Assembly (NCBI RefSeq): GCF_019320115.1
Contig: NC_089593.1
Span: 35,597,835-35,661,834 of the forward strand
DNA from: Miscanthus floridulus
Taxonomy: Eukaryota > Streptophyta > Magnoliopsida > Poales > Poaceae
Reading direction: 5' to 3'
DNA: 64,000 bases
Shown here piece by piece: positions 3,425-46,756 of this stretch. Both the position numbers and the translations under genes were made by a program. The notes below the pieces were generated by a model. The model was not told the DNA's origin, made no database searches, and saw only the letters and a program-made list of their open reading frames with translations. Numbering within the stretch: the stretch's first letter is position 1; each line of letters opens with the position of its first letter.

Positions 3425-3438
3425 TCTCTTGTGTGTAG

Positions 3439-6400: not shown

Positions 6401-6660
6401 AAAAAGTACCTCTTTTGTGCGACAATGAAAGTGCGGTAAAACTTGCAAATAATCCGGTTCAACACTCATGCACCAAGCACATTGATATCTTCCATCACTT
6501 TCTTAGAGATCATGTTGCAAAGAATAATATTTCATTAGAAGGTGTAAGGATTGAGGATCAATTGGCGGATATCTTCACTAAATCGCTAGATGAGGTGACT
6601 TTTTATCGATTGCGGAATGAGCTCAATGTTCTTGATTTTAGTAACTTCACTAAAAAATAA
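3439..6660 (+). pseudogene. pol: Sirevirus A pol: protease, integrase, reverse transcriptase, RNase H
   Basis: Domains appear in Ty1/copia order. The aspartic protease motif DSGCTQHMTG starts near 3475. The GAG-pre-integrase/HHCC region follows (HVGMSSLKKLM, then CSACQASKQ). The integrase core shows MDLFGPT, VDDYSRYTW, SDNGK and NGIVERKN. Reverse transcriptase starts around 5060, with its YVDD catalytic box at 5703-5714. RNase H carries the copia-typical LSTAKAEYIA and ends ADIFTKSLDEVTF before TAA at 6658-6660. The gene is dead: there is a stop at 4264-4266, a frame change near 4400-4510, a stop near 4950, TAG for an expected Trp at 5592-5594, a stop at about 5750, and more frame changes before 6052. 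Pol begins in a different frame from gag, 15 bases after the gag stop. Confidence 0.92.
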
Positions 6661-13112: not shown

Positions 13113-16100
13113 TCAAGTATTAATCCAAACACTAGGATAATATTTCTTTAGATATTTTCTGTTGATTGCTCTGCCAAACTCTTCTTCTCCTCCTAGTGTT
13201 TCTAGAACATAAGCATTGCCAGGTGCACAACTTTTAATCCGATAAGGTCCTTCCCAATTAGGCGACCATTTGCCGAACTCGCTGTCCTTTGATCCGATCA
13301 GTAATTTTACTTTCCAGACTAAGTCTCCTTTAGAAAATTACTTGCCCTTGACCTTTTTATTGTAATATTTTGCAATCCTTAGTTTATTGGCTTCGATATT
13401 CTCAAGAGCATGTAGCCGATGGCAACTCAAGTCCTCTAAGTCATCTATCATAAGATTCTTGTAGACTTCGGCTGACAAATCATTTTGCAATGTGACACGC
13501 CTCGATCTAGTTCGAATTTCCCAAGGAAGGACTGCATTATGACCATACACAAGTTCATAAGGCGATGTTTTAATCGATCCATGATAGGCCATCCTATATG
13601 CCCATAATGCCTCATTAAGCGTTGAATGCCACTTCCTTGGCTGCTCCTCAATCTTTTCTTGATTAGCTTAATCATAATATGATTGGACGCTTCTACCTAG
13701 CCATTAGCCTAAGCATAGTAAGGAGAAGAATTTAGTAGCTTAATTCCCATACTGGCAGCAAAATCCCTGAACTCTTCTGATGTGAACATTATCTCTTGAT
13801 CGGTAGTGATAGTTTAAGGAATCCCAAAATGATACACAATATGTTCCTTGACAAAATCAACCATGTTCTTTGAGGTTACCGTCTTCAAAGGAATTGCATC
13901 AACCCACTTAGTGAAGCAATCTGTTGCTACCAATATGAATTTATGTCCTTTACTTGAGGGCGAAAAAATCTGGCCAATTAAATCAATTCTCCAGCCTCGA
14001 AATGGCCATGGTTTGATTATTGGATTCATAGCTGATGCAGGCGATTTCTGGACATTACCAAAACATTGACAGTCCTAGCACCCCTTATAATATTCAAAAC
14101 AGTCTTTCAATATTGTTGGCCAAAAATATCCATTTCTATGAATAATCCATTTCATCTTATAAGCCGATTGATGAGCTCCACATATCCCTTCATGCACTTC
14201 ACCCATCAACACCTTAGCTTCCTCTTGATTTAAGCATTTGAGCAATGCCCCATCGACTGTTTTGTAATATAGCTGATCATCCAGTAAAACATACTTAGTT
14301 GATTTGTACCTTAGCTTCCAAGTAACTTTTTGTGATGGATTCCTAAGGTAATCAGCTATTTCAACTCTCCAATCATTACTCGAGGTTTTACTACTTAAGA
14401 CTTCTTGAAACACCCGATATCCTGATGCACTTTGAGCCAAACAATTAGCCTCTTGATTCTGTGCTGTTGGAATATGTTGAAAAGAGACATGAAGAAATTC
14501 CTCGAGCAACTTTTGGCATTCATCATAGTATCCCCTCAGAGTATCTTCTTTGCACTCATATAGGCCGATCAACTGATTAATAATTAACTTTGAATCTCCA
14601 AATACTTCAATTGCTTCGGCCTTTGCTTCATGAGGAAGCTGAAGCTCCTTAAAAATAGCTTCATATTCTACTTGGTTGTTGGTAATCATTGACTCAGCTG
14701 AAAAAGCAAACTCAAAACTTGCCCCCCGAGGCGAAATAATAACAATACCAATCCCACCACCTTGCTTGCATGATGATCCATCAAAGAATAATGTCCAAGG
14801 TACCGGTTCTACATAATCAATGCTTGGCTTATGACGTTGGGTGACAAAATCAGCTATTACTTGTCCTTTGACTGCTTTTGCCGATTCATACCTCAAGTCA
14901 AATTCTGACAACGCAAGAATCCACTTTCCCATTCTTCCATTTAATATTGGCATTGATAGCATATGCTTGATCACATCAGTCTTAGAGACAACTGTACACT
15001 CAGCCGACAAGAAGTAATGTCGTAACTTAGTGCAAGAAAAATATAAGCATAAGCATAACTTCTTAATGACAGAATATCTTGTCTCTGGATCCAGAAGCCT
15101 CCTACTGAGATAGAAAACAACTCGCTCTTTCCCTTCGAACTCTTGCATCAGGGCCGATCCAATTGTCTGGTTATCGGTCGATATGTACAACTTAAAAGGC
15201 TTACCTTGCTGAGGAGGGACCAGCATGGGTGGACATTTCATATATTCTTTTATCTCCTCAAACGCCTTTTATTGTACATCACCCCATTTAAATTCTTGAA
15301 CATTTTTCAACTTCAACAAGAGAGAAAATGACAAAACTCTCTCCGACATTTTTGAAATAAATCTCCTGATAAAATTAATTTTGCCAAGCAAAGATTGTAA
15401 CTCTATTTTAGTAGTCGGGGGCACTGCCTCATCAATTGTTTTTATGCTTTTTTGACCAACTTTGATTCCTCTCTCATGGACCATGAAACCCAAGAATTGT
15501 CTAGCTGACACTCCAAAGGCACACTTATTAGGATTCATCTTTAGACCATGTTTTCTTGTGCATTCTAGAGTCTCCCACAAATTAGCTAGATGCTCCTTGT
15601 ACCCCTTGGATTCTATCATTACATCATCAATGTAGATTTCAACAATCCTGCCGATCAACATATGAAAAATATAATTCATTGCCCTCTGATAAGTTGCACC
15701 AGCATTCTTCTGACCAAAGGTCATCACAACCCACTCAAATAAACCGATTGCGCTAGGGCACCTGAAAGCGGTCTTTGCTATGTCTTCCTTAGCCATGAAA
15801 ATTTGGTTATATCCTGCATTGTCGTCCATGAAGCTAATAACCTTGTGCCCGGCTGCTGCGTCTACCAACATATCGGCTATCAGCATCGGATAACCATCTA
15901 TGGGTGTGGCCTTGTTCAGATCTCTGAAATTGATACAAACTCTTAACTTTCCATTCTTCTTATACATAGGAACAACATTCGATATCCACTCTGCATATCG
16001 GCATGGTCGGATAAACTTTGCTTCCAGTAACGTTTCAGTCTCCTTTTTGATATCATCTAGTACGTTTGGGTTGAATCTCCTCAGAGCTTGTTTAAACGGC

Positions 16101-16360
16101 CGATATCTAGGTTTAATTGGCAATTGATGTTCAACAATCGATCGATCTAGACCAGGCATCTCATAGTATTCCCAAGCAAAATAGTCTTTAAATTCCTTTA
16201 ATAAATCGACTAACTCTTGCTTATACTCCGGATCCAACTTGGCACTTACATACGTCGGCCTAGGCCTATCTCTAGAACCAATATCTACCTCTTCTAATTC
16301 ATCGGTCGACGTGAAGCCATGTCCTAGTTTGGCATCTATACCATCTATTGGATTATCCAT
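13113..16360 (-). pseudogene. pol: Tat A pol: reverse transcriptase, RNase H, second RNase H, integrase
   Basis: One frame runs from 16360 to about 13620, then shifts by a frame to the end near 13113. Reverse transcriptase shows INFRDLNKATP and the YIDDV box (near 15625). A Ty3 RNase H follows (LYISTDNQTIGSALMQEF). Next comes a second, archaeal-type RNase H (WTLFFDGSSCKQGGGIGIV, then TNNQVEYEAI and VFGDSKLIINQL). This double RNase H is the hallmark of the Ty3/gypsy Tat lineage. Integrase shows WRIDLIGQIF, TTDQE and a truncated C-terminal part. Stops sit where Gln is expected in related proteins (for example TAG in the ANG-VEA stretch near 13690-13720, and TAA near 13815). Confidence 0.9.
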
Positions 16361-28676: not shown

Positions 28677-28787
28677 ATGGATCGAGAGGAGATGCATCTG
28701 TCCCGAACGGACAAGCGGTACATGCATGGCGTCAGCTAGTTTTATCACCGATGCCAAAGCCCATGCTGGGAATGAGAACCTGTCTTC
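28677..28787 (+). pseudogene. CACTA transposase N-terminus, cut by the Tekay insertion
   Basis: The reading from ATG 28677 (MDREEMHLSRTDKRYMHGVS) has the look of the transposase-associated domain found at the start of plant TNP2-type proteins. TAG and a one-base gain follow near 28735-28742, then FITDAKAHAGNEN. The insertion splits the domain; it resumes at 43627 with FCPCKDCKNH. Confidence 0.75.
28783..28787. other. Target site duplication TCTTC (left)
   Basis: TCTTC here and at 43627-43631 directly flank the Tekay element, whose outer ends are TGTAACA and TGTTACA. This fixes both borders. Confidence 0.9.
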
Positions 28788-31700
28788 TGTAACAGAACCG
28801 ACCAATTATACGAAATTAAGTAAGAAAATCATCCGCCAGAGCAGACGATTTAGCAAACTTAAGCCCGTATAACCCGGTAGTCCGTGAAATCACGAAGGAT
28901 TTCAAACCAACTTCCATTCCAGCCAAGATCGTAATAAGTCTAGCGGTCACCATCATATATTGCATAAAAGTTCACAATCACAGGTACATCAGAGTTTCAA
29001 CATAGTTATTACAACACCAGTTCGAATAAAAGTAGCGGAAGTTATTTGTTCAAACCACACACACTGATGCGGAGTTTAAATATAGTGCCAGCGAATGATC
29101 ATCTCCAACAAAAGCATCAGATGAGACGTAAGGAATGACCATGCCCATGGTCCTAAGCATCACCCATCGTAGGATAAAGGCAGTTGATACAGTAGCCGTA
29201 ATACATCTGTCCATCTGCAACAAGTGGGAATAAAACCCTAAGTACGAGAAGGTACTCAGCTAGACTTACCCGATATAACCAAAAATAAATGACACCAAGG
29301 ATTATGAAGGGCTTTATAGTAGGGTAGCTGACTCATTTGCAAAAAGAAGCATTTTTAGCATTTCAAGAACCTTTCAAAAAGCATTATTGCCAAGTTCATT
29401 ATTATTAACCTGTCGACTAGATTTGCACCTATACTAGAGTAAACATGTGATTAAGCAGATAATGATAACCAATTATCATTAAACAACTTCCATACTGTCA
29501 TATTCATTAGAACTGTCCAAGTGTTCCATAACATTTACTACGATGAAGTAACTCAAGTCAAGTGCTCACTATCCAAGAGCGATGGCGATTCGAATCGATT
29601 CCTAACCAGCTGGTGATTTATTCCTTACACAAACCTCACTCACCCGCTAAAGTGAGATATTGATCACCGAGTCAACTTTCCAGGAATCTCGAGTTTGCCA
29701 GGAACCACATGTACCTGGGGGCCGACCGACTGCACTTTGGTCTTATCATCCCGCCCCCGTGTCCTACCACACCTGCTCCGGCACAGTGCGTTGCGGGCAA
29801 TCTACTTGGCCCGAAAAATCTCCCAGCTTCGCGGTCGGAAGGTACTTTATCCAGCCAGCTAAATGTAAGGCATGCGTTCAACATGACTCGAGGCCCAACA
29901 ACGGTCGGTCCTTAATCGACACAGACGGAAAGCACTACAGTCCAAAACTCTGCAAGTCTCCGTCCGGTCTCAACTTCATTTAACACTTAGTTATACCATG
30001 ACTTCATAGTCATCCAAACAGATCCAGGTAACCACCTATAGCTCACAGGTGACAGAAAATCACCTGACTTCTACCGGTCTAAGCCAACTAAGCATTGACT
30101 CGACTACGGATACCAGGGTAACAAGGATATAGTATAACAAAGGTAAACAAGGTATAATGCAGCAACGGTTGCAAACAACTCCTGAACGTAATGCATCAAT
30201 TAAAGTAAAGCATTTAATTAACAATTGCAAACTGGGAGAAAAATGCTCCGGGGCTTGCCTCTCTCGAAGGAGCTCGGACGGTGATCGGGGCACTCCGGAA
30301 GTTCCTCAACGTCCTCCTCGTCGGCTTCTGGCACTTCCTGCGGCTGCACCTCGAACTGCTCCTCGGGCTCCTCGGGTATGACGACTGGGTTCTCGGTTTG
30401 CGATCCTGTATGATGCAATGTGCGTAAGTGCTTATGCAATCGGTGCATCGGATGAGATGAATACAATGGATATGTTGGAATGCAAGGTAGTCAACATCAT
30501 CCAAGAAAATATACTACAAGCACATGTCATCTACTGCATTCTCTTCTACTACTAATATGTTAATTCAACACATTTTATTAAATGCTTTAAAGATACACCA
30601 AAGCTTTACTAATTTCTTAAACACACACATGAAGCAACACCTAATTAAACCCTAATTAATAATAGGTTTGAATAGCAACCTCTATTTTTCTTGCTTAGAA
30701 AAATCTTAGAAAATTACTACAGCATAGTATTACCCTAAGAAGTGTACCATCAGATTTTCATGATATTTGAGTGAGTGGATTAGCCTACACAAAAATAACA
30801 AGCTATGGCATGATTTTGTACATGAAAATACTTTGTACTGTGAAAAATGTCAAACAACAGAGTTAGTATTTTTCCTATGTTCTTCATAGCATACAATGAC
30901 TGTACAAAAATTATCACATGCATGTTTTATACAAAGTTTGCTCTCTAGCAAAAATAACAAAAATCAGCTATTAAAGGTACTTGAACTACACCTAAAAATT
31001 TTCTCACAGCACATGCATGAAACATATTTTTCCTAGGAAATACAGGACATAAGAAGATTAACAAACTTGGAATCATATTTTTCCAAAGCCTATAGATTTT
31101 TCTACATATTTTTCAAGTTATCAGCAATATTCATGATTAAATAAAGTTCTACAGAAAAGTATTTCAAAAATGTCATGCAAAAATTTTTCCAAGTAGATCT
31201 AATGATAAGGAACCTAGACAAATTTATTTTAACAAATTTGGAGCAAATTTGAGTACCCAAACATTTTTCAAACCATTTCAAATTTCAAATAATAAAGAAT
31301 AAATGGAAAACAATTCGTTTAAACATTACTGGGCCAGCCCGAACGGCTTAGGCGGCCCACGACTGTGCGCGCACACGGCCCAGAATGGCGCAGCCCAGCT
31401 TCGGCTTCCTCTCAGCAGCGACGACTGGTAAATGGGACCCGCACGTCAGCGAGAGAAAACAGGGGACGGAGGGAGACGACGGCGCGGCAGCCGCGAAATT
31501 CGCCGACGGCGAGTTCTCCAGTGAACCCGACGGCACCGGCGTGCTCCCCACAACTATGCGCACCCATCCATACCTTCATTTCAACCTCTACCGTACCCTA
31601 GCAATGACGACGTTAGCAATAGCGGGCAGCAGCGAGTTCGCTGCGGCGCTCCGGCGACGGCGAACTCCCATTGTCACAAACAAGCTTGGTACAAGCTTCA

Positions 31701-32882
31701 CGAGACTACTACGGAGCTACCCAAGCAACTAGAAGCGGACGGAAGAGTCCCTAGCTGCCCCAACCACGGCGGCCTCAACTCCGGTGAGGACACGCGAATG
31801 GCGGCGGTGGCGGGAACGGACAATGCGCCCTTACCAAAACTCAGACGGTGCAGCCAAGGGGTGGAGGAGGTAGAAGAGAACAAGGCGGCACTACGATGAA
31901 GATGTAGTGAGCAATTTTGCGATGGCGAGCAAGAGCGAGCTCGTCGGAGTTGTTGCGGCTACTGCTGTGGAGCTGCGAGCGAGCGGAGAAGGCGAAGGAA
32001 AATGAAAAACGAGCGGCTGAATTGGTCGAGCATGCGCGCGGGGGCTTAAGGCGAGGCCAGCGGTGCCAGAACGGCCGCGGCGCGTGGCCTGTGCGAGCAG
32101 AAGACCAGCGACGCGTAGCATCCACATGGCGGGCAAGCCCTGACGCGGTCGGGGGTGTGGCGCGGCGACGGGCGCTGCGCGCGGCGCTGGGCTAGGCCGA
32201 GCGAGGCAAGGCGCACGAGCGGCGGGCGCTACTGGGCCGACTCACGAGGTGGGCTGGCGCGTTGGGCGGGCGAGGCACGCGGCTGGCGGGGACGCGCGCC
32301 AGGCCAGCTTCGGCCGTGGGCCGGAAACGAGGCGGCGGCCCGCGAATGAGAAAAAAATCCTTTTTCAAATATATTTTCAAGAAATTTTTAAATGCCATCT
32401 TTCAAATATTATTTTGAGCAAGAAAATGACATCTTTTGAAAATGTACCAAAAATGAAAGTTGACTAGAATTTAATTCTCTACAACTTTGCTGTTATGACC
32501 AAAGCCAAATTCTTTGTAGATTTTGAATTATAAATTCAAAGTCAATGTTTAACTCCAAACCCTAATTTTTGGGAAATTACTTTTGAAGCCAAATTTTTAA
32601 TTAGTTTGAATACAAACCTTGCTCCAAAAATTGAACTATACATTGCTAGATGATTTACAATGATAGCCAAACAAGTTCTACTAACCTAGCAAGCAAAAAT
32701 TCAAGGCAAAACAATTCTAACCAAGGTATGCAACATTCAGGTTTCACACATGTTTCAAATGTTTCGAAACAATGTTTCAGTTGTTATTCACATGATTAGG
32801 CATGTATGATTTGGATGCTTGATGATGCATGATATGCGTGATTTGCAGTGCCTAAATGCAGGCATAACATCAGGGTGTTACA
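28788..32882 (-). repeat. Tekay chromovirus 3' LTR (4095 bp)
   Basis: Read on the minus strand, the LTR starts TGTAACACCCTG (at 32882) and ends CTGTTACA (at 28788). It is near-identical to 39544-43626. In the first 600 aligned bases I count about nine differences, all transitions, so the insertion is fairly recent. It contains a GC-rich block (31330-32340) that would be the transcribed leader region, and long AT-rich flanks. Open frames in the GC-rich block recur in both LTRs and are not genes. Confidence 0.95.
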
Positions 32883-35853
32883 GCCCTCCCCCTTATAAAA
32901 ATCTCGTCCCGAGATTTGGGTTACGAACCATTTGTTATAAAATTCTTCATAAGCTTTTTGCAGATACTCTCCTGTTTCCCAAGTTGCATCTGCCTCATCA
33001 TGATGATCCCACTGTACCTTGTATGTTTTCACCACACTATTCCGAGTAGCACGTTCCTTCATGTCTAACACCCGGACTGGCTGTTCACGATACACCAAAT
33101 CTGATTTGAGTTGAATACCTTGAGGTTCTATTCTTTCCTCCGGAACACGCAAATATTTCTTGAGATGTGATACATGGAAAACTGGGAAAACGGTACTCAT
33201 TGTCTCAGGTAACTCTAACTTGTAGGCTACCAGACCTCTTCGTTCCAAGATCTTGTACGGTCCTACGAATCTCGCAGCAAGCTTTCTTCGGATTCCAAAC
33301 CTTTTCTTCTTCATTGGCGTGACTTTCAAATAAACATAGTCACCAACTTCAAACATAAGGGGTCTCCTTCTTCTGTCTACATAGCTTTTCTGACGTGATT
33401 GGGCAGCTTTCATATTCTGCTGAATAATATGAACTTTCTTCTCAGCTTCTTCTACAAAGTCAATGCCATAATACCTCCTATCACCAGGCTCGACCCAATT
33501 CAATGGTGTTCTACATTTTCTGCCATATAAAGCTTCGAATGGGGCCATCTTGATGCTTTCTTGATAACTATTATTATAAGAAAACTCAGCTAACGGTAAC
33601 CATGACTCCCATGATCCCTTAGAAGACAATACACAGGCTCTTAACATATCCTCCAAAATAGCATTCACTCATTCAGTCTGACCATCTGTCTAAGGATGAT
33701 AAGCGGTACTACGAATCAAACTAGTTCCTAAGCCTTTGTGTAAATGTTCCCAAAAGTGAGCCGTGAACTATGAGCCTCGATCAGATACTATGGTCTTTGG
33801 TATACCATGCAACCTCACAATTTCTGCGATATACTTCTCGACATATTGAGGTGGTCGATAATCTATTTTGACCGGCAAGAAATGAGCAGTCTTGGTAAGA
33901 CGGTCCACAATTACCCAAATTGAATCATGTCCTTTTTGAGTAGTGGGCAAACCCGTGATAAAATCCATACTGATATCATCCCACTTCCAACTAGGGACTA
34001 ATAAGGGTTGCAACATACCGGCAGGTTTCATGTGAATGGCTTTCACTCGACAACATGTGTCACATCTGGCCACATATGCTGTAATTTCTTTCTTCATTTT
34101 GGTCCACCAATAGCGAGATCCTTATTCTTGATACATCTTATTACTTCTAGGATGGATAGATAGCTTAGACAGGTGAGCTTCATCGATGAGTTTATTCCTA
34201 AGCTCTCGATCCTTGGGAACCACAAGACGGCTGTCAAACCACAACATGCCCTGTTCATCCACTTTAAAGTGTTGAGACGACTTTTCTTTTATTTTCTCTT
34301 TGATGTGGAATATCCCCTTATCGGTTTTCTGGCCTTCTATTATCTTACTTTCCAAAGAGCAACTAATCTGAATACTATGTAACATAGCAGGATGCATTAG
34401 ATCGAACCCATCTTCAAGTAATGGCTGCACATTCAAGTAATGTGACTTCCTGCTCAAAGCATCTGCCACTACATTGGCTTTACCAGGATGATATTGCACA
34501 TTCAAGTTGTAATCCTTTATCAATTCCAACCATCTGCGCTGTCTCATGTTTAGCTCTAGTTGGGTAAAGATATACTTAAGACTCTTGTGATCCGTGAAAA
34601 TATTGCACACATTACCAAGTAGATAATGTCTCCAAATTTTTAGGGCGTGCACAACTGTAGCTAGTTCAAGATCATGTGTTGGATAGTTGACCTTGTGCTT
34701 TCTCAATTGTCGTGATGCATAAGCAATGACTCTCCTTTCTTGCATAAGAACACAGCCCAATCCAGTCTTCGATGCATCGCAAAACACATCAAATGGTTTC
34801 TTGATATCTGGTTGTGCTAGAATAGGAGCAGTGGTCAACAGTTTCCGCAAAGTGTGGAAAGCTGCTTCACACTCCTCTGTCCACACAAACTTGTGATCCT
34901 TCTGTAGGAGACTCGTCATCGGTTTGGCAATCTTCGAGAAATCTGGTATAAAGCGATGGTAATAACTGGCTAGTCCTAAGAAACTTCTAATCTCAGGGAC
35001 TATGGTCGGTGCTTTCCAATTCATAACTTCTTGCACCTTACTTGGATCGACTGAAACTCCATTCTCTGATAGAATGTGACCAAGGAAAGGAACTTCCTTC
35101 AACCAGAATTCACATTTGCTAAACTTAGCATACAATTGATGATCTCTAAGTCTAGTCAAGACAGTTCTCAGATGCTCTTCATGATCTTTCTTGTTCTCAG
35201 AATACACCAGAATGTCATCGATGAACACTACCACAAACTTATCCAATTCTGGCATGAAAACCGTATTCATCAAAAACATAAAGTATGCAGGAGCATTTGT
35301 CAAGCCAAAAGACATGACAAGATACTCATACAACCCGTATCTGGTGGAAAATGCAGTTTTCGGTATATCCTATGGCCTAATCTTGATCTGATGATAACCG
35401 GATCTCAAATCTATTTTTGAGAACACCTTGGCCTTGGATAATTGGTCAAACAGAACATTAATATGTGGCAAGGGATATTTATTCTTGATGGTTACAATGT
35501 TGAGTGGCCTGTAATCTACGCACATTCTCAACGTGCCCTCTTTCTTTTTCTTCACAAACAAAGCGGGACATCCCCATTCAGACTTGCTTGGCCGAATAAA
35601 CCCCTTTTTTTAACAAATCTTCTAATTGCTTCTTCAGCTCAGCTAACTCATCTGGAGGCATCCGATAGGGTCTCCTTGAAATCAGAGCTGTTCCGGGGAC
35701 TAGCTCAATTCCAAACTCAATCTCCCTATCTGGTGGAAGACCAGGTAGCTCATCTAGGAATACATCCGGGAATTCACACACTACCAGAATCTGATGAATA
35801 GGAATGACTACCGTAGCACATGTAACACTTATTAGGTCTGTTCTCCGAGGCAA
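32796..35853 (-). pseudogene. pol: Tekay pol: reverse transcriptase, RNase H, integrase with chromodomain-like tail
   Basis: Reverse transcriptase has CVDYRPLN and FIDDILVYS. RNase H has [16 protein letters not shown] and ends in ADALSRK. Integrase has the zinc-binding region (CDTCCRVKA), the core (MDFITGLPTTQKG, VDRLTKTAHF, DRGS, TDGQTE), and the GPY-like segment FVGPYKILERRG. The C-terminal part (VVKTYKVQWDHHDEADATWE) has the pattern of the chromodomain found at the end of Tekay/Del integrases, which is thought to direct insertion to marked chromatin. Breaks include stops near 34123, 33767, 33705 and 33669, and frame changes near 35340-35580. The last frame has no stop before the polypurine tract and ends 87 bases inside the LTR. 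Confidence 0.92.
32883..32896 (-). other. Polypurine tract of the Tekay element
   Basis: On the minus strand, ATAAGGGGGAGGGC directly precedes the LTR start TGTAACA. The pol frame reads through it. Confidence 0.85.
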
Positions 35854-36033
35854 TGGTACTCAGAAAGTACCCTCACCCAAGGGATCCTTAAGGGTAAGTA
35901 CTCGACTTCTAGTATCTATGACTGCTCCCCAATCCTTCATCTAATTCATCCCTATAATGACATCCAAGACTAACCCAGGCATAACTATCAAGTTCACTCG
36001 GAACTTCCTGCTACCTAATTCAAGGGTTGCCCC

Positions 36034-37400
36034 TCAAACCATCTGGTTGGTCAAAACATCAGCCCCTGCTGAACTTATACGGTACCCATAACCCAATTCT
36101 GTGCATAGTTGTCCATGTTTCTGTGCAAATGCTTGACTCATAAAAGAATGCGATGATCCAGAATCAAATAGAACAATTGCAGGGTTTTTGTTGACAGAAA
36201 ACTTACCAGCAGTGATAGGCTCTCCCTTAGGAATTTCATCCACTGTTGTACTGTGCACTCTAGCATTATAAGTCTGCTGCTTCTTCTTGGGCGGGTACAG
36301 ACAAAACCTCGAGAAATGGCCGGGTTGATCACAGTTATAGCAGGGTCCTCTCACTGTCCCGGCAGATCCCACAGCTCCCTTGGAACTGCCTTGTACCGCA
36401 GTTGTGGCTGCTTTGTTGGGCTGTACTGCCATCTTGTATGGCTTTTGGGGTCCACGGAAATTTTGGCTTCTTTGCTGAGGTGGCCGGAACCTAGCGCTAG
36501 GTGCCGATGGGCAATATGGGGAACGACCTCCCATAGGGGCTCTAGCTTGAGACGGCCCACCTTCAAAGGCTCTCTTGCGTGTCTTGGCTGCGGTGCTGGC
36601 GTTGTTATTCTTCTCCTGCTTCAGACAGTCGCTGATGAAGTCATTGAATCTGACGCGGTTGTTGGTACCAACATGCTTTATCATTTTTGGATTGAGACCC
36701 CTCTTAAAACTGGCTATTCTTTTAGCATCTGTGTCAACCATGTCGGGAGCATAGCGACACAAGTTGTTGAAGGCATGTAGTATTGCGTCACGGTTTTGGT
36801 GCCCTGGTTCAACGCTAGAAACTCTCCCAACTTCATCTCGGTCAGCCCTGGTGGAATATAGGTTCCACGGAAGGCCTCAGCAAACTCTCTCCAAGAAATC
36901 TGAGCATTTGGAGGGAAGGTGGTGCGATGGTGCTTCCACCACATTCCCGCCGGTCCTTGCAATTGAAGTGCAGCATACTTCGTTTTTAGAACCTCAGTCA
37001 TCCTCAACACACGGAATTTATCTTCCATCGTGTTGATCCATTCCTCAGCATCGAGTGGCTCTGTTGCTTCCTTGAATACTGGCGGCCTGGTGTCCATGAA
37101 ATCTTTGAAGCTGCTATATTGGTTCACTCCCATGCCACCACCTTGATTGTTACCACGTTGAACGTTGTTGGCGATGGTTCAAAGAAGATCCTCCATGTTC
37201 TTCTAAGATTGTTCCGCGTTGCGCTGACTCCTGAGCAGCTGTGCAAGGAACATCTCGGGGGTAAATGGGGGAGGAGGTGGTAAATGTGGTTCATGGGGAG
37301 GTTCATTGTTGTTGCCGTGGTTTCCACCACCACCACCAGCCCCCACACCGTTAGCACCAGGCTCAGCGGCCTCATACGTGGTTCGGCGAGTGTTTGTCAT
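36034..37400 (-). pseudogene. gag: Tekay gag and protease
   Basis: The preferred start is ATG 37400 (MTNTRRTTYEAAEPGANG), directly behind a TGCAG splice-acceptor-like site. An ATG two codons upstream would fall inside that site. A Gly/Asn/Pro-rich N-terminus precedes the Gag domain (FMDTRPPVFKEATEPLDAEE, then EFAEAFRGTYIPPG). The zinc knuckle CYNCDQPGHFSRFC lies near 36310-36350. The protease motif FDSGSSHSF lies near 36160. Damage: TAG after AEQS at about 37203 and TGA just downstream, both C-to-T type, and a one-base loss near 36770 that changes frame. Confidence 0.9.
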
Positions 37401-37765
37401 CTGCATATTTTAGCAACAAGTAACGATTGAGTGAAGCTATAATAATTGCGAGTGAAGGAAAAATTATGCCATACTGAATTTACCGGAGAGAATAAATTCA
37501 TGCAATAAAACAGAGGCACAACAATCGCATCCCAATTAAAACAACAGCACTTAATCGAATTACTTCAACGGCAAACATCGCGTCCATACAATCAAATTGC
37601 CAGCATACATACACTGGACTTTTTATGCGTTCAGATATCGCATTCAGAAATCAGTTCCAACCACATGCCAAGTCTCATACGTTCGAAGCAACATACAATA
37701 GGTTACATGCCAACAAAAGAAAGGTCATCGCGACAGAACCTAGATACTAGCGCAAGGCAACTAGC
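37401..37765 (-). other. Spacer between ORF0 and gag
   Basis: This is 365 bases of AT-rich sequence ending in TTGTTGCTAAAATATGCAG before the gag ATG. It looks like intron sequence with a 3' splice site. Confidence 0.5.
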
Positions 37766-38755
37766 CTACTCCTCGGGGCCATTGTCGGGATCGGAGACAT
37801 CACCATCGCCCCCAGGTGAAACTGCAGGCTCGTCCTTGTTGTCGTTGTCGACGTCCATGCCAGCGGCGTCTGGTGGAGCATATGGGCCAACCCCATCGTA
37901 GAGCACGTGAAACTCCTCGTGTAGGTAGCCGTTGTATTCCTCTAGCTCATCGACTCTCTGTAGCAAAAGGTTTCTTGCGTTCCAGGCTTCATTCCTTTCC
38001 TGAACCAACTGTCCAATCATGCGGTCTGCATTATTGTTGGCTTGAGTTAATGTATGCACTCGCTGCATAGCTCTATCACCTCTCTCAACCGCCTAATCTC
38101 GCTGTAAGTTCATATCAGCCAACTGCTCCTACAAGCTAGCTATAACACGTGCCTATCTCTTCTTCTGCTTTTTCCCTTTTAGCTTATCCTCACTATGCAA
38201 GCCAGTCAAAGTCCAATAGGTACTCTCGAGACCCTCATACGCTCTGATGGCGGCGAACATAGCACTCATTGCCTGGTTGTCGCTAGCCTGTCCTTCAGCT
38301 AGACCTCTGACCAATGCACTTCCCTAAGGCTGAAACCAAATGGCATCACGAGGATCATCCCTAGGAAAAGTACTAGCTAGAGCTACTGCAAGCTCACTGG
38401 GAAATCTGCTCATAATATCCCTGATGACACAGAAGGCTGCTCCCTCTGCACCCTCAGCTGGAGTGCGACCCTCAAACTCCAAATGCCAACCATCCTAATC
38501 TGGAGCATCACCGAGAGCAGGAACCGTGATCTCCACCACTGCAAGTCCATCCTCTGCTAACTGGCTCTCATTCCAAGAGTACACCGGCTCTTGACCCTCT
38601 GGGTACCCCACATCATGGAGCACTCTCCAAAGCAAAGTTGGCATGCCAAACTCGCTCAAGAAGGTGTCCGTGGTGCGGTGCTCCCTCAGGGCCAACGGAC
38701 ATCGGGGTGCTCTTCCTCCGGTGGACTTATGGGCGGTCTGCTTCGTGCGGGCCAT
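37766..38755 (-). pseudogene. ORF0 of the Tekay element: histone H3 tail-like N-terminus plus coiled coil
   Basis: A single 330-codon frame runs from ATG 38755 to TAG 37766-37768, interrupted only by five in-frame TAG codons (38495, 38324, 38153, 38129, 38093). Removal of Met would expose ARTKQTAHKSTGGRAPR, which equals the histone H3 tail at 15 of 17 positions; Lys4, Lys9, Ser10 and Arg17 are kept, Arg8 is His and Lys14 is Arg. After residue 21 the H3 match stops, except for ALREHR, which resembles ALREIR of H3. A globular part follows (about residues 25-190, with WHLEFEGRTPAEGAEGAAF). Then come a Lys/Arg cluster (KLKGKKQKKR), a coiled coil (about 200-285) and an acidic C-terminus (DVDNDNKDE). 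There is no histone fold. The ORF lies upstream of gag and its ATG follows a CTACAG acceptor-like site. The function is unknown; I do not recognise this ORF from described elements. Confidence 0.8.
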
Positions 38756-39529
38756 CTGTAGCAAAAGTTCTTTTATTACCTCGGGGAAACACATTTTAGG
38801 TGATACAACTTTTATCAAAATGAGATAATCAATTTATAAGGGGAGGAATGCATGAGATGAATGAAATGCCCAAGTAACATGATGTATGTACGTGCCGTAC
38901 GTTCTCACAAACTTAGGAAATAAATAATTTCTAACGATGAATTCGGTGGCATACAACAATCTCTCAATACGTAGCTAATACGTTCTACACGATAGCGTTG
39001 TTATGTACCTGCAGAAGATCCATTTCAGCCCAATTCCCAATGAATGCATAAAAAGCAGTAACTTTTATCTACACGCTCTACACGAATCCCCAGATACATG
39101 TACAACGGTAGTAACTACCCGAACCATCGTCCTATTGACGGCATCGCCTCCACAGACGGAAGACCCATACATGAGATACCTTTGTAAAACATGCGTAGAA
39201 CATGTAATTACTCCAGCATCATATAAGCATTCACCCTAGATCGGCGGTGTATCCAATCATGCTCTCACAACTCACACTTACCGAGGCGTAGAGGCAAATG
39301 ATCCATTCATTACCACTCAAACAAGTGGCACTCATACAATAACATGCCATATGAGCGACGAATGAGAAATATGATGCAAGAATCCCAGTCAATACTTAAT
39401 TAAGCCACCTAAAGTCCTTAACTGGGCATAAAGGATATGATCACTGGCACACTTTATATTTTGAAAATCACGTTTTCCAAATGCCTTTTTGTTTTAAATA
39501 CACTTGTGAACAGTAACACGCTAAACCAT
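38756..39529 (-). other. Tekay leader between primer-binding site and ORF0
   Basis: This is about 770 noncoding bases ending in AACTTTTGCTACAG directly before the ORF0 ATG. No gene is visible. A splice donor was not assigned. Confidence 0.5.
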
Positions 39530-39541
39530 GCTCTGATACCA
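39530..39541 (-). other. Primer-binding site of the Tekay element
   Basis: The minus strand reads TGGTATCAGAGC, complementary to initiator methionine tRNA. It lies two bases from the LTR end. Confidence 0.95.
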
Positions 39542-39543
39542 GC

Positions 39544-42500
39544 TGACCAATTATACGAAATTAAGTAAGAAAATCATCCGCCAGAGCAGACGATTTAGCA
39601 AACTTAAGCCCGTATAACCCGGTAGTCCGTGAAATCACGAAGGATTTCAAACCAACTTCCATTCCAGCCAAGATCATAATAAGTTTAGCGGTCACCATCA
39701 CATATTGCATAAAAGTTCACAATCACAGGTACATCAGAGTTTCAACATAGTTATTACAACACCAGTTCGAATAAAAGTAGCGGAAGTCATTTGTTCAAAC
39801 CACACACACTGACGCGGAGTTTAAATATAGTGCCAGCGAATGATCATCTCCAACAAAAGCATCAGATGAGACGTAAGGAATGACCATGCCCATGGTCCTA
39901 AGCATCACCCATCGTAGGATAAAGGTAGTTGATACAGTAGCCGTAATACATCTGCCCATCTGCAACAAGTGGGAATAAAACCCTGAGTACAAGAAGGTAC
40001 TCAGCTAGACTTACCCGACATAACCAAAAATAAATGACACCAAGGATTATGAAGGGCTTTATAGTAGGGTAGCTGACTCATTTGCAAAAAGAAGCATTTT
40101 TAGCATTTCAAGAACCTTTCAAAAAGCATTATTGCCAAGTTCATTATTATTAACCTGTCGACTAGATTTGCACCTATACTAGAGTAAACATGTGATTAAG
40201 CAGATAATGATAACCAATTATCATTAAACAACTTCCATACTATCATATTCATTAGAACTGTCCAAGTGTTCCATAACATTTACTACGATGAAGTAACTCA
40301 AGTCAAGTGCTCACTATCCAGGAGCGATGGCGATTCGAATCGATTCCTAACCAGCTGGTGATTTATTCCTTACACAAACCTCACTCACCCGCTAAAGTGA
40401 GATATTGATCACCGAGTCAACTTTCCAGGAATCTCGAGTTTGCCAGGAACCACATGTACCCGGGGGCCGACCGACTGCACTTTGGTCTTATCATCCCGCC
40501 CCCGTGTCCTACCACACCTGCTCCGGCACAGTGCGTTGTGGGCAATCTACTCGGCCCGAAAAATCTCCCAGCTTCATGGTCGGAAGGTACTTTATCCGGC
40601 TAGCTAAATGTAAGGCATGCATTCAACATGACTCGAGGCCCAACAACGGTCGGTCCTTAATCGACACAGATGGAAAGCACTACAGTCCAAAACTCTGCAA
40701 GTCTCCGTCCGGTCTCAACTTCATTTAACACTTAGTTATACCATGACTTCATAGTCATCCAAACAGATCCAGGTAACCACCTATAGCTCACAGGTGATAG
40801 GAAATCACCTGACTTCTACCGGTCTAAGCCAACTAAGCATTGACTTGACTGCGGATACCAGGGTAACAAGGATATAGTATAACAAAGGTAAACAAGGTAT
40901 AATGCAGCAACGGTTGCAAACAACTCCTGAACGTAATGCATCAATTAAAGTAAAGCATTTAATTAACAATTGCAAATCGGGAGAAAAATGCTCTAGGCCT
41001 TACCTCTCTCGAAGGAGCTCGGACGGTGATCGGGGCACTCCGGAAGTTCCTCAACGTCCTCCTCGTCGGCTTCTGGCACTTCCTGCGGCTGCACCTCGAA
41101 CTGCTCCTCGGGCTCCTTAGGTATGACGACTAGGTTCTCGGTTTGCGATCCTATATGATGCAATGTGCGTAAGTGCTTATGCAATCGGTGCATCGGATGA
41201 GATGAATACAATGGATATGTTGGAATGCAAGGTAGTCAACATCATCCAAGAAAATATACTACAAGCACATGTCATCTACTGCATTCTCTTCTACTACTAA
41301 TATGTTAATTCAACACATTTTATTAAATGCTTTAAAGATACACCAAAGCTTTACTAATTTCTTAAACACACACATGAAGCAACACCTAATTAAACCCTAA
41401 TTAATAATAGGTTTGAATAGCAACCTCTATTTTTCTTGCTTAGAAAAATCTTAGAAAATTACTACAGCATAGTATTACCCTAAGAAGTGTACCATCAGAT
41501 TTTCATGATATTTGAGTGAGTGGATTAGCCTACACAAAAATAACAAGCTATGGCATGATTTTGTACATGAAAATACTTTGTACTGTGAAAAATGCCAAAC
41601 AACAGAGTTAGTATTTTTCCTATGTTCTTCATAGCATACAATGACTGTACAAAAATTATCACATGCATGTTTTATACAAAGTTTGCTCTCTAGCAAAAAT
41701 AATAAAAATCAGCTATTAAAGGTACTTGAACTACACCTAAAAATTTTCTCACAGCACATGCTTGAAACATATTTTTCCTAGGAAATACAGGACATAAGAA
41801 GATTAACAAACTTGGAATCATATTTTTCCGAAGCCTATAGATTTTTCTACATATTTTTCAAGTTATCAGCAATATTCATGATTAAATAAAGTTCTACAGA
41901 AAAGTATTTCAAAAATGTCATGCAAAAATTTTCCCAAGTAGATCTGATGATAAGGAACCTAGACAAATTTATTTTAACAAATTTGGAGCAAATTTGAGTA
42001 CCCAAACATTTTTCAAACCATTTCAAATTTCAAATAATAAAGAATAAATGGAAAATAATTCGTTTAAACGTTACTGGGCCAGCCCGAACGGCTTAGGCGG
42101 CCCACGACTGTGCGCGCACATGGCCCAGAATGGCACAGCCCAGCTCCGGCTTCCTCTCAGCAGCGACAACTGGCAAATGGGACCCGCACGTCAGCGAGAG
42201 AAAACAGGGGACGGAGGGAGACGACGGCGCGACAGCCGTGAAATTCGCTGACGGCGAGTTCTCCGGTGAACCCGACGGCACCGGCGTGCTCCCCACAACT
42301 GTGCGCACCCATCCATACCTTCATTTCAACCTCTACCGTACCCTAGCAACGACGGCGTTAGCAACGGCGGGCGGCAGTGAGATCGCTGCGGCGCTCCGGC
42401 GACGGCGAACTCCCATTGTCACAAACAAGCTTGGTACAAGCTTCACGAGACTACTACGGAGCTACCCAAGCAACTAGAAGCGGACGGAAGAGTCCCTAGC

Positions 42501-43626
42501 TACCCCAACCACGGCGGCCTCAACTCCGGTGAGGACACGCGAATTGCGGCGGTGGCGGGAACGGACAATGCGCCCTTACCAAAACTCAGACGGTGCAGCC
42601 AAGGGGTGGAGGAGGTAGAAGAGAACAAGGCGGCACTACGATGAAGATGTAGTGAGCAATTTTGCGACAGCGAGCAAGAGCGAGCTCATTGGAGTTGTTG
42701 CGGCTGCTGCTGTGGAGCTACGAGCGAGCGGAGAAGGCAAAGGAAAATGAAAAACGAGCGGCTGAACTGGTCGAGCAGGCGCGCGGGGGCTTAAGGCGAG
42801 GCTAGCAGTGCCAGAATGGCCGCGGCGCATGGCCTGCACGAGCAGAAGACCGACGACGCGTGGCATCCACGCGGCGGGCAAGCCCTGACGCGGTCGGGGG
42901 CGTGGCGCGGCGACGGGCGCTGCGCGCGGCGCTGGGCTGGGCCGAGCAAGGCAAGGCGCACGAGCGGCGGGCGCTGCTGGGCTGACTCGCGAGGTGGGCT
43001 GGCGCGTTGGGCGGGCGAGGCACGTGGCTGGCGGGGACGCGGGCTAGGCCGGCTTCGGCCGTGGGCCGGAAACGAGGCGGTGGCCCGCGAATGAGAAAAA
43101 ATCCTTTTTCAAATATATTTTCAAGAAATTTTGAAATGCCATCTTTCAAATATTATTTTGAGCAAGAAAATGACATCTTTTGAAAATGTACCAAAAATGA
43201 AAGTTGACTAGAATTTAATTCTCTACAACTTTGCTGTTGTGACCAAAGCCAAATTCTTTCTAGATTTTGAATTATAAATTCAAAGTCAATGTTTGACTCC
43301 AAACCCTAATTTTTGGGAAATTACTTTTGAAGCCAAATTTTTAATTAGTTTGAATACAAACCTTGCTCCAAAAATTGAACTATACATTTCTAGATGATTT
43401 ACAATGATAGCCAAACAAGTTCTACTAACCTAGCAAGCAAAAATTCAGGGCAAAACAATTCTAACCAAGGTATGCAACATTTAGGTTTCACACATGTTTC
43501 AAATGTTTCGAAACAATGTTTCAGTTGTTATTCACATGATTAGGCATGTATGATTTGGATGCTTGATGATGCATGATATGCGTGATTTGCAGTGCCTAAA
43601 TGCAGGTATAACACCGGGGTGTTACA
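39544..43626 (-). repeat. Tekay chromovirus 5' LTR (4083 bp, 11 bp missing at inner end)
   Basis: This is the partner of 28788-32882. On the minus strand it begins TGTAACACCCCGG at 43626. At its inner end it lacks 11 bases (GGTTCTGTTAC) that the other LTR has; deleting them from the intact end plus GC plus primer site gives exactly the sequence seen here. Confidence 0.93.
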
Positions 43627-43631
43627 TCTTC
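43627..43631. other. Target site duplication TCTTC (right)
   Basis: Matches 28783-28787 and lies directly after the LTR end GTTACA. Confidence 0.9.
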
Positions 43632-46600
43632 TGCCCATGCAAAGATTGCAAGAATCATAGGAACTTTCGTCAAATTGAGTCTATACGATCACACTTGATT
43701 ACTAGGGGGTTCATGTCAAACTATACGATATGGACTATGCATGGCGAGGTTGGTGTGAATGTTCTATAGGAAAACGATGATGATGTGGACATGCCTAACG
43801 TAGCCATCCACGATGCTGACAAGGAACCCGATGTCAATACAGAACCTATGGCCATAGTTAATAATATGTTTAGGAACACGCTAGCTGACGACACCGAGGA
43901 TAATGATGGCATTTCTCAGCTGCTACGTAATGTAAAGACCGGATGTCTTAGTGAAAGACAACTGAGAAAGCTAGAGAAAATGAGATAAGATGGCAAAACA
44001 CCATTGTATAGGAATTGTCCAATGAGCAAACTGGAAGCTGACATCATGCTGTTAGAGTTCAAATCGACAAACAGATTGAACGATAAAGGCTTCGATCAGT
44101 TGTTAGGTATAATAAGGAAAATGCTCCTAGAAAAAAATGAGTTGCCAGAAAAGACATACTTGGCCAAGCAAATGATCTGCCCCATTGGCCTCGAGGTTGA
44201 AAAAATCCACGCGTGTTCTAATGATTGCATATTGTACCATAGAGAAAAATACAAAGACTTAGACAAGTGCCCCAAGTATGAAGCTCCATGGTATAAGGAA
44301 GGGCCATTAGATGAGGGTACCAAGACTAGAGGAGGTCCCATAAAGGTTATTTGGTATTTCCCTATAGCTCCCCGGGTGCATAGGCTATTTGCATGTGCAA
44401 AGTCAGCCAAGCTGTTGCGCTGGCATGGCAAAGAGCGTAAGAAAGATACAATGATGAGGCACCCCGCCGATGGGCATGACTGGAGGACTATCAATACTAT
44501 GTTCTATAAGGACATCGGTGAAGAGGTAAGGCACCTTTGGTTTGCTTTGAGCACAGATGGGATGAATCCTTTCGACCAGGTTAGAAGCAATCATAGCACC
44601 TGGCCAGTGACGCTCTATATATACAACCTTTCACCTTGGGTCTGTATGAAGCGGTCGTACATCTAGATGCCACTACTGATCTAAGAGCCAAGACAACCTA
44701 GGAATAACATCGATGTGTTTCTGGAACCAGTGATTGATGAACTAGTGGAGATGTTTGAAAAGGGTGTGCCGGATGTTTGGGATGAATACAAAAAGGAACA
44801 TGTCACGATAAAGGGAGTACTTATCGCTACAATCACCGACCTGCCAGGTTGAGGTTCGTTGCCCAGAGAGAAGACAAAAGGCTATACTAGATGTGTCGAG
44901 TGCTTGGACGACACCGATGTGATAAATCTACCAAATAACTCAAAGATAGTTTATATGGGACACCGTAGGTTCCTACCTAAGGATCACCCTTACCATAGGA
45001 ACAGAAAAGATTTCAATGGTACTATTGAGAAACGCTTAGCTCCAAAATATCGAGACGGGCCTACGATACTTTGAGAACTCAACAAACTAGAGGTTGTCCT
45101 TAGGAAGGGGGACAATGCAGTAGCAACGCCTGATGGGAGCGTTTGGAAGAAAAAATTGGTTTTCTAGAAACTACCTTACTGACTATTTCTGAGTGTACGC
45201 CACTGTCTTGATGGACACCTTGGGGGACATCAAAGGTTTCACTAGCCACACGCCTGGACATGCAACACTTGGGAATCAAGAAGGAGTTGCATCTCGTGGA
45301 TCTAGAGAATGGCCAGTTCGAACTTTCGGCTGCGTCATGGACATTGAAGAAGGAAGAAAAGCATGCGCTTATTTCTTTCTTCAATGAACTCAAAGTCCCG
45401 ATGGGCTACTGTGCGAACCCGAAGAGGCTAGTGAACATGAGAGAACTCAAGTTCAACTATGGCCCTATGAAGGCCCATGACTGTCATGTCATTATGACTC
45501 AGCTGCTCCCTGTTGCCCTGCGTGGTATCCTCCCCCCAAAGGTCTGCGCCCCAATCATAAAGCTTTGCTCGTTCTTCAACGCAATCTCAAAAAAGGTCAT
45601 TGATGTGTCCATGCTAGAGCAGCTGCAGCGGGACATAGCCAAAACTCTCGTTAGGCTTGAGATGCATTTCCCGTTGACTTACTTTGATATCTCATTGCAT
45701 CTGCTCATTCATCTTGTTGACCAAATTAGAGCCCTTGGCCCAATGTACCTGCATCAGATGTTTCCTTTCGAAAGATTGATGAAAGTTTTCAGGAGGTATG
45801 TTAGGAACAGATTCAAGCCAGAAGGGGGCATGGTTGAAGGATGGTCAATGGAGGAGGCCATTAAGTTCTACACATATTATCTGGACATCAAAAGGGTTGG
45901 AGTTCTAGAATCTCGTCATGAGGGAAGACTACATGGCAAAGGAATGATCGGGGAGAAATCTGTTATAGTAGATGACCCTATTTCTTTCAGACAGGCATAG
46001 TTCGCTGTTCTCCAGCAAGCCAAGGGTGTGATGCCATACATTAATGAGTACAGGCAATCACTGCAAACTCTGTATCTGAGCAGGTCACAGGCTTGGCTAG
46101 ATAAAAAACATAAGGAGGAATTTGTTAGCTGGTTGCAACATCGCTTGCTTGGAATAAAGTTGGGTAATCAACTGGATGCCTTAGCCAAGGGACCTTTAAG
46201 TACATATCTTAAGTACCAAGGGTATGAGATCAATGGATTCACATTTTACACAAAAAAGCAAGATGGAAAGAGCACATTCCAAAATCGTGGTGTTCGTTTT
46301 GATGCTCACGATGAGAACGGCAACCTACAGGCGACATACTATGGTTTCATAGAGGAGATATGGGAGCTAGCCTACGGTCCATTGAAGGCAACTCTTTTTC
46401 ACTGCCATTGGGTTCGGCTTGAGGAAATCAACACTGATAGTGAAGGGTTCACTACCGTTGATCTCACTAAGACCGCATACAGAGATGACCCCTTCATCCT
46501 TGTAAGAGATGTTATGCAAGTCTTCTATGCAAGGGACAACAAGACAAAAGGAAGGCTAAAAGTAGTCCTAGAAGGGAAAAGGAAGATTGTCGGTGTCGAT

Positions 46601-46756
46601 GGAGTGACGGATGAAGAAGACTACAGGGGCTATCAGGAAATGCCTCCACTTGGGGTGAACGTACCCCTACCTATCCTTCAAGAGGGTGACGAACCTGCTT
46701 ACGTACGAATTGATGACAATGAGGCCCTCATTTTTGATGTACCTAAAGATAGTTAG
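43627..46756 (+). pseudogene. CACTA transposase (TNP2-type), decayed
   Basis: The frame resumes after the Tekay insertion with FCPCKDCKNHRNF and IRSHLITRGFMSNYTIWT, the transposase-associated domain of plant CACTA elements. The TNP2 transposase region follows (44004-44666, with CPKYEAPWYKEG and KVIWYFPIAPRVHRLFA) and continues past stops at about 44664-44681. After a frame change near 45100-45260 come a DUF4218-like region (45260-46000: CANPKRLVNMRELKFNYGPM, then WSMEEAIKFYTYYLD) and a DUF4216-like region (46028-46756: TYYGFIEEIWELAYGPLKAT, then FILVRDVMQVFYA), ending in TAG. This domain order is standard for grass CACTA transposases, which cut and paste the element through its terminal repeats. 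Internal stops and a missing piece before 45260 make it inactive. Confidence 0.9.

What the first reader, a model, noticed from the sequence alone, without database searches (positions are those of the whole stretch)
37766..38755. A retrotransposon ORF whose product starts as a histone H3 tail mimic
ORF0 of the Tekay element would give, after Met removal, ARTKQTAHKSTGGRAPR, identical to the histone H3 tail at 15 of 17 residues (17 of the first 21), with Lys4, Lys9 and Ser10 in place. The His at position 8 is a CpG transition away from the Arg of H3. No histone fold follows; instead there is a globular region, a basic patch, a coiled coil and an acidic tail. A tail of this kind could be a substrate for H3 methyltransferases or bind H3 tail readers. 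Histone mimicry is known from some viral proteins (influenza NS1), but I do not recall it from a plant LTR retrotransposon. Function is inference; the tail match and its position at the very start of a long frame are seen directly.
Basis: partly seen in the sequence, partly recalled or inferred. Interest (0 to 1): 0.92.

Follow-up and report, generated by a model that had tools for sequence, protein, structure and literature searches.

The report
Jumping gene protein with histone-like tail
A plant jumping gene carries an extra, now broken, gene whose protein begins like the tail of histone H3, and many relatives keep that tail and its key lysine 9, which suggests that the element imitates host chromatin; that the start resembles H3 has, as far as I recall, been published before, but the lysine pattern is not something I found in print.

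Summary
ORF0 of a Tekay-like retrotransposon (28788-43626) starts MARTKQTAHKSTGGRAPR: 15 of 17 and 17 of 21 residues equal histone H3. This copy is dead (five in-frame stops). Of 82 ORF0 N-termini with 25 or more readable residues before the core, 78 (77 homologues plus the window) carry the tail and 4 do not; 5 more begin at their own Met without it. Tail-bearers and tail-less separate on one branch. Lys9 is kept in 78 of 78, H3's Lys14 in 2 and Lys18 in 0; Lys4 is Lys in 49 and Arg in 28. Lys9 is the second-slowest of 110 columns. The globular part is predicted to be a dsRBD fold without the RNA-binding KKxAK motif. Best reading: a captured H3 tail kept as a Lys9-centred mimic. Function is untested. 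Prior art: I recall a 2011 paper reporting H3 similarity of extra ORFs in grass chromoviruses (not readable here); a 2024 paper reports the dsRBD likeness.

The parts
38690..38755 (-). Histone H3 tail-like N-terminus of ORF0 (Met plus 21 residues)
   Evidence: 17 of 21 residues as in H3; the 60 PDB sequence matches shown are H3-type chains
38726..38728 (-). Codon of the H3 Lys9 equivalent (AAG)
   Evidence: AAG in the codon list; Lys in 78 of 78 tail-bearing N-termini
38753..38758 (-). CAG|ATG junction: start codon of ORF0 directly after CAG, a possible 3' splice site
   Evidence: sequence; Gln precedes the start in 14 of 15 homologues with readable upstream residues; the pyrimidine tract here is poor, 72nd of 128 acceptor-like sites
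38390..38650 (-). Globular part, predicted dsRBD-like fold (alpha-beta-beta-beta-alpha)
   Evidence: AlphaFold2 of relatives P0016 and P0010, Foldseek and VIA-align
38153..38185 (-). Basic patch KLKGKKQKKR followed by a TAG codon; possible nuclear localisation signal
   Evidence: translation; localisation is inference
37901..38152 (-). Long helix, probable coiled coil (two TAG codons inside)
   Evidence: helix 155-296 in the model of P0016; mapped onto the window by eye, limits approximate
37769..37870 (-). Acidic C-terminal tail
   Evidence: net charge -11 over the last 40 residues
37766..38755 (-). ORF0 reading frame, broken by in-frame TAG at codons 87, 144, 201, 209 and 221
39545..43626 (-). 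5' LTR
   Evidence: 4083-column match to the other LTR, 97.45% identical
28788..32882 (-). 3' LTR; it ends in TGTTACA, 12 bases beyond the match to the 5' LTR
43627..43631 (-). Target site duplication GAAGA, 5' side
   Evidence: GAAGA directly before the 5' LTR and directly after the 3' LTR
28783..28787 (-). Target site duplication GAAGA, 3' side
39530..39541 (-). Primer binding site TGGTATCAGAGC (initiator tRNA-Met type, recalled)
   Evidence: exact match just inside the 5' LTR
36714..37133 (-). gag fragment
   Evidence: Retrotrans_gag PF03732, E 2.5e-11
36034..36762 (-). zinc knuckle and protease part
   Evidence: RVP_2 PF08284 E 5.3e-12, zf-CCHC E 6.2e-5
34122..35333 (-). reverse transcriptase and RNase H part
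   Evidence: RVT_1 E 3.3e-20, RT_RNaseH E 7.9e-33
32796..33668 (-). integrase C-terminal part with chromodomain (about 32931-33077)
   Evidence: SH3_Tf2-1 E 1.2e-23; Chromo PF00385 E 9.3e-5, 22.7 bits, below the curated cut-off of 25.1

Best explanation
ORF0 is an accessory protein of Tekay-like chromoviruses of grasses. Its first 21 to 26 residues most likely descend from a captured host histone H3 gene start. The tail is kept because it imitates the H3 tail around Lys9. Proposed working: splicing or another 5' event puts this ATG first; the initiator Met is removed and Ala1 is exposed as in H3; the disordered tail is offered by a dsRBD-like module and a long coiled coil to host enzymes or readers of H3 Lys9, and acts as a decoy that weakens silencing of the element. 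Shown by calls: the tail, its spread among relatives, Lys9 invariance, loss of Lys14 and Lys18, the predicted fold. Inferred: grass hosts of the relatives, capture, Met removal, the partners, the decoy effect. The copy in the window is broken.
For: 78 N-termini align in register with H3 from the start. Lys9 78 of 78; Lys14 2 of 78 (Arg 64), Lys18 0 of 78 (His 62), Lys4 49 of 78 (Arg 28). Uncharged residues Thr6 71, Ala7 72, Ser10 71, Gly13 73, Pro16 76 and Leu20 76 of 78 are kept too, so charge alone does not explain it. Residue 1 is Ala in 74 of 78 and Ser, Thr or Val in 3 more. Site rates: tail 0.88, linker 1.44, rest of core 1.03; Lys9 second-slowest of 110. In the 10 tail-bearers that came from the searches, Lys9 is 10 of 10. 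P0166 and P0067 match H3 at 4 and 3 of the 7 further residues 22-28, against a mean of 0.64, which favours descent from H3 over convergence. Both fold models give a dsRBD topology.
Against: No experiment, no transcript, no dN/dS. Nine ORF0 sequences lack the tail, so ORF0 can do without it. The tail is not slower than the structural motif that follows it (0.69). The window copy has His8. The N-terminal search used a profile that contains the tail and listed 120 of 773 hits, so degenerate tails are under-sampled; one search listed 120 of 289. Asking for 25 residues before the core favours tail-bearers, so 78 to 4 is not a frequency. Lys codons hold no CpG, which lowers their decay compared with many Arg codons. 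The CAG|ATG site has a poor pyrimidine tract in the window.
Confidence: 0.45

Rival explanations
1. Tether instead of decoy: the tail becomes methylated at Lys9 and is bound by heterochromatin readers, or by the element's own integrase chromodomain, and so steers where the element inserts.
For: The same Lys9 pattern; the element carries a chromodomain, and the partner of the type II chromodomains is reported as not identified (PMC6317226 and PMC3350952, passages read). Sunflower Tekay groups with and without a 5' extra ORF differ in insertion pattern (PMC11728184, passages).
Against: Type II chromodomains lack the first and usually the third aromatic cage residue. The sunflower extra ORF is not similar in sequence to the grass ones. 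Tail-less ORF0s exist.
Confidence: 0.25
2. The start is a captured H3 fragment kept as a generic basic, disordered leader (nuclear import or nucleic-acid contact), with no H3-specific reading.
For: Net charge of residues 1-31 is +5 in the window and +8 in P0016; changes at Arg2, Arg8 and Arg17 are common.
Against: Lys9 is never replaced by Arg in the 78 while Lys4 often is; uncharged residues Thr6, Ala7, Ser10, Gly13, Pro16 and Leu20 are mostly kept. A separate basic patch exists in the window and P0002.
Confidence: 0.15
3. Passive capture without function: the tail hitchhikes on active elements.
For: A sister set of ORF0s does without it; the window copy has decayed elsewhere in the frame and several tails carry changes.
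Against: The tail is kept across deep splits of the ORF0 tree while the adjoining linker varies.
Confidence: 0.1
4. Convergence: the resemblance to H3 arose by selection without capture of an H3 gene.
For: Short H3-tail motifs in viral proteins (NS1 ARSK, ORF8 ARKS) are known (PMC10208167, passages).
Against: At least 21 aligned residues in register from the start, with traces to residue 26 in P0166 and P0067.
Confidence: 0.05

Closest known systems
ORF0 / 5' extra ORF of grass Tekay-type elements (Retrosat2, RIRE3, RIRE8; maize and sorghum homologues)
   Same: Position between a LTR longer than 3 kb and the main ORF; reported as not found outside grasses (PMC3485330, abstract and three sections read)
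   Different: That paper's main text does not contain 'histone', 'mimic' or 'MARTK' and proposes hydrolase-like and other enzyme functions
Extra ORFs of Poaceae chromoviruses with partial similarity to histone H3 (Steinbauerova et al. 2011, recalled; not read)
   Same: Very probably the same family and the same similarity
   Different: I recall only the abstract; the Lys9 pattern, the tail-less branch and the fold are not in what I recall
Maize Tekay and sorghum Sb7 5' aORF proteins with DRBM-like fold (PMC11728184, passages)
   Same: dsRBD-like by Foldseek (TM 0.35-0.37); the authors suggest RNA-silencing modulation
   Different: 'histone' does not occur in its main text; KKxAK is missing in the relatives read here
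Influenza A NS1 histone mimic (ARSK)
   Same: A viral protein with a short H3-tail-like motif (PMC10208167, passages); NS1 also has an RNA-binding domain (recalled)
   Different: A four-residue C-terminal motif in NS1; here 21 or more residues at the very N-terminus
dsRBDs of DRB7.2, DCL4 (dsRBD2), TRBP (dsRBD3, by residue range, recalled) and Staufen (dsRBD5)
   Different: Sequence identity 12-16%; no dsrm family among the 25 most matched Pfam families of 73 members

Membership tests
Tekay-lineage chromovirus of grasses with ORF0 | LTRs longer than 3 kb, terminal repeats of one element | tested here: met
   4083-column LTR match, 97.45%; target site duplication GAAGA on both sides
Tekay-lineage chromovirus of grasses with ORF0 | Extra ORF between 5' LTR and gag on the sense strand | tested here: met
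   ORF0 37766-38755, gag 36714-37133, both minus
Tekay-lineage chromovirus of grasses with ORF0 | Integrase with C-terminal chromodomain | tested here: inconclusive
   PF00385 E 9.3e-5, 22.7 bits, below the curated cut-off of 25.1; in the right place
Tekay-lineage chromovirus of grasses with ORF0 | Reverse transcriptase groups with Tekay | not tested
   no RT tree was built
Histone H3 tail mimic | H3-like sequence around a modifiable lysine | tested here: met
   17 of 21 in the window; Lys9 78 of 78
Histone H3 tail mimic | Modified by, or bound to, host H3 enzymes or readers | not testable with these tools
   needs biochemistry
Histone H3 protein | Histone fold after the tail | tested here: not met
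   models of two relatives show an alpha-beta-beta-beta-alpha domain and, in P0016, a long helix
dsRBD fold | alpha-beta-beta-beta-alpha domain | tested here: met
RNA-binding dsRBD | KKxAK at the start of helix 2 (motif recalled) | tested here: not met
   absent in 101 of the 101 rows (of 228) whose helix-2 start a pattern could read; domain net charge -4, -12 and -13 in the three sequences measured
RNA-binding dsRBD | Match to the Pfam dsrm model | tested here: inconclusive
   no dsrm in the tables of 8 proteins nor among the 25 most matched of 44 families for 73 members

The most novel reading that the evidence does not exclude
ORF0 is a two-headed antagonist of transposon silencing: a captured H3 tail kept for Lys9, with Lys14 and Lys18 lost, engages the H3K9 methylation machinery, while its dsRBD-like domain engages a Dicer or DRB partner, so that one retrotransposon protein interferes with both chromatin and small-RNA silencing. 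(Probability lowered from 0.20 to 0.18 on checking: RNA-binding dsRBDs tie with protein-binding ones within one Z unit.)
Probability: 0.18. Interest if true: 0.92.

Novelty: new variant of a known kind. Interest (0 to 1): 0.66.

Why it matters
H3 mimics are known from animal viruses mostly as short motifs. A widespread H3 tail in a class of plant retrotransposons, with Lys9 held and Lys14 and Lys18 lost, would be a natural mutational scan of which H3 residues matter to an element that lives under silencing, and would make the open question of what ORF0 does directly testable with a peptide and a point change. It would also offer a candidate partner for the type II chromodomain, whose ligand is reported as not identified (PMC6317226, passage).

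Tried and rejected
Rejected: chance; a histone gene (no histone fold in the models); an RNA-binding dsRBD (KKxAK absent in 101 of 101 readable rows). The hydrolase-type functions proposed in PMC3485330 find no support in the rows shown, which does not exclude them. A strong 3' splice site at the ATG is not supported by the window alone (72nd of 128 acceptor-like sites by pyrimidine content); the idea rests on Gln before the start in 14 of 15 homologues, several of them near-copies.

I first thought that the fold is closest to protein-binding dsRBDs. The leading rows are such, but RNA-bound RNase III dsRBDs score within one Z unit (7.7, 7.0), which the tool calls a tie.

Led nowhere: viral-contig scans and one genome-contig scan found no relatives. 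The genome search did not complete, so the host genome, other copies, DNA of relatives and dN/dS could not be studied. Literature searches on histone mimicry and transposons and on the extra ORF listed no title that describes this tail; for only 20 of 222 and 20 of 51 papers were listed, and most listed papers were not opened. The review PMC7264820 has no 'histone' in its main text.

Rows dropped: 121 of 228 rows had no anchor that the pattern could find. Of 107 with one, 23 had under 25 residues before it, and P0020 and P0215 were false anchors (judged by eye), leaving 82: 78 tail-bearers and 4 tail-less. For rates, P0022 and P0175 were left out before alignment (76 of 78 aligned) and six frameshifted or chimeric rows after, leaving 70. 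The tree kept the 79 of 228 rows with a long enough core, 11 tail-bearers among them; its bootstrap had not settled.

Full report
What is there. The frame lies on the minus strand, 38755 down to 37766, in the leader of an LTR retrotransposon: LTRs at 39545-43626 (5') and 28788-32882 (3'), 97.45% identical over 4083 columns, a target site duplication GAAGA on both sides, a primer binding site TGGTATCAGAGC at 39541-39530, and gag, protease, reverse transcriptase, integrase and a weak chromodomain match, all minus. LTRs over 3 kb, a chromodomain and an ORF0 before gag fit the Retrosat2/Tekay group described in PMC3485330 (abstract and three sections read); I built no RT tree. The host is unknown to me; a grass is inferred.

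The tail. After Met the product reads ARTKQTAHKSTGGRAPRCPLA: 15 of 17 and 17 of 21 residues as in H3. H3 against the whole window gives this place at E 2.9e-8 and otherwise one hit at 9.1. The 60 matches shown of 130 in the PDB sequence search are H3-type chains, and so are the 60 shown of 154 for a profile of 73 ORF0 relatives (best E 2e-5). This copy is dead: five internal TAG codons.

Relatives. Three protein searches gave 21 of 21, 120 of 289 and 120 of 773 hits as listed rows, 227 distinct proteins from unnamed metagenome sources. In 107 of 228 rows (window included) an FLxEFG-like anchor was found; 84 of these had at least 25 residues before it, two of them false anchors. Of the remaining 82, 78 (77 homologues and the window) carry the tail and 4 (P0021, P0116, P0122, P0126) do not. 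Five more begin with their own Met 9 to 12 residues before the anchor and have no tail (P0051, P0053, P0115, P0120, P0121). Because the 25-residue rule favours tail-bearers, these numbers are not frequencies. Many other rows start at an internal Met or are truncated, so their state is unknown. On a tree of 79 core sequences the 11 tail-bearers and 9 tail-less rows that could be placed are separated by one branch (support 100/99); the root is unknown, so gain and loss cannot be told apart, and the bootstrap had not settled.

The pattern. Against H3, the 78 tails keep Ala1 74, Arg2 64, Thr3 64, Lys4 49 (Arg 28), Gln5 35 (Leu 40), Thr6 71, Ala7 72, Arg8 66, Lys9 78, Ser10 71, Thr11 65, Gly12 63, Gly13 73, Lys14 2 (Arg 64), Ala15 63, Pro16 76, Arg17 55, Lys18 0 (His 62), Gln19 68, Leu20 76, Ala21 72. 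So within residues 1-21 the tail has shed H3's lysines except Lys9 and, in part, Lys4. With LG+G4 on 70 sequences and 110 columns, mean relative rates are 0.88 for the tail, 1.44 for the linker, 0.69 for the FLxEFGMPTLLWRVL motif and 1.03 for the rest; Lys9 (0.31) is second only to the start Met. Two cautions. One search searched with a profile that includes the tail, so bad tails are under-sampled, although the 10 tail-bearers also have Lys9 10 of 10. And CpG decay inflates changes at Arg codons (inference). P0166 and P0067 match H3 beyond residue 21 (4 and 3 of 7), which points to descent from an H3 gene.

The start codon. In 14 of 15 homologues with readable residues before the start, Gln precedes it (10 of 11 tail-bearers, the exception P0166 having no Met there; 4 of 4 tail-less). 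The window has CAG|ATG and 24 upstream ATGs in a 789-nt leader. A conserved 3' splice site would explain both, but the window's pyrimidine tract is poor, so this stays a lead.

How it may work. I think the tail is a Lys9-centred H3 mimic, more likely a decoy for H3K9 writers or readers (0.45) than an insertion tether (0.25). What follows translation is inferred.

What is known. I recall that Steinbauerova et al. 2011 reported partial H3 similarity in extra ORFs of grass chromoviruses; the paper is not held. A citing paper attributes to it plant gypsy elements with a PMD domain and a YgdH/LONELY GUY case (PMC9289625, passages), which fits my memory of the abstract but does not mention H3. PMC11728184 reports DRBM-like folds for maize and sorghum 5' aORFs and suggests silencing modulation (passages). 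PMC3485330 does not mention histones in its main text. In the listings of my searches (held library only, long lists cut at 20) and the passages read I did not find the Lys9 pattern, the tail-less branch, or the tail and the fold considered together.

Changes on checking: the 3' LTR end was moved to 28788 and the target site duplication added; the statement that the fold is closest to protein-binding dsRBDs was weakened to a tie, with the novel case lowered from 0.20 to 0.18; the chromodomain row was set to inconclusive because it is below the curated cut-off.

Noticed in passing
31385-31732 and 42130-42477 (+): Both LTR copies hold a 115-codon open frame antisense to the element (MAQPS.GFLSAATTGKWDPH...); the first has no Pfam match at E 0.01.
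   Followed up: partly
28788-28799 and 39541-39545: The last 12 bases of the 3' LTR have no match at the end of the 5' LTR, where the sequence runs almost directly into the primer binding site.
   Followed up: partly
44004-46756 (+): Parts of a CACTA-type transposon lie next to the 5' LTR: Transposase_21/tnp2, DUF4218 and DUF4216.
   Followed up: partly
1556-6660 (+) and 61499-63993 (-): Copia-like polyprotein pieces with closely similar peptides lie near the two ends of the window in opposite orientation (by eye).
   Followed up: no
14075-16360 (-): Reverse transcriptase/RNase H-like frames of another gypsy-type element (by eye).
   Followed up: no
P0195 (protein): A tail-bearing start continues into a core that resembles another ORF0 type, possibly a recombinant element or a chimeric contig.
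   Followed up: no
P0067 and P0166 (proteins): These tails resemble H3 furthest downstream (QLATRA / HLATKA); P0067 also keeps Lys14, so this lineage may be nearest to the captured H3.
   Followed up: partly
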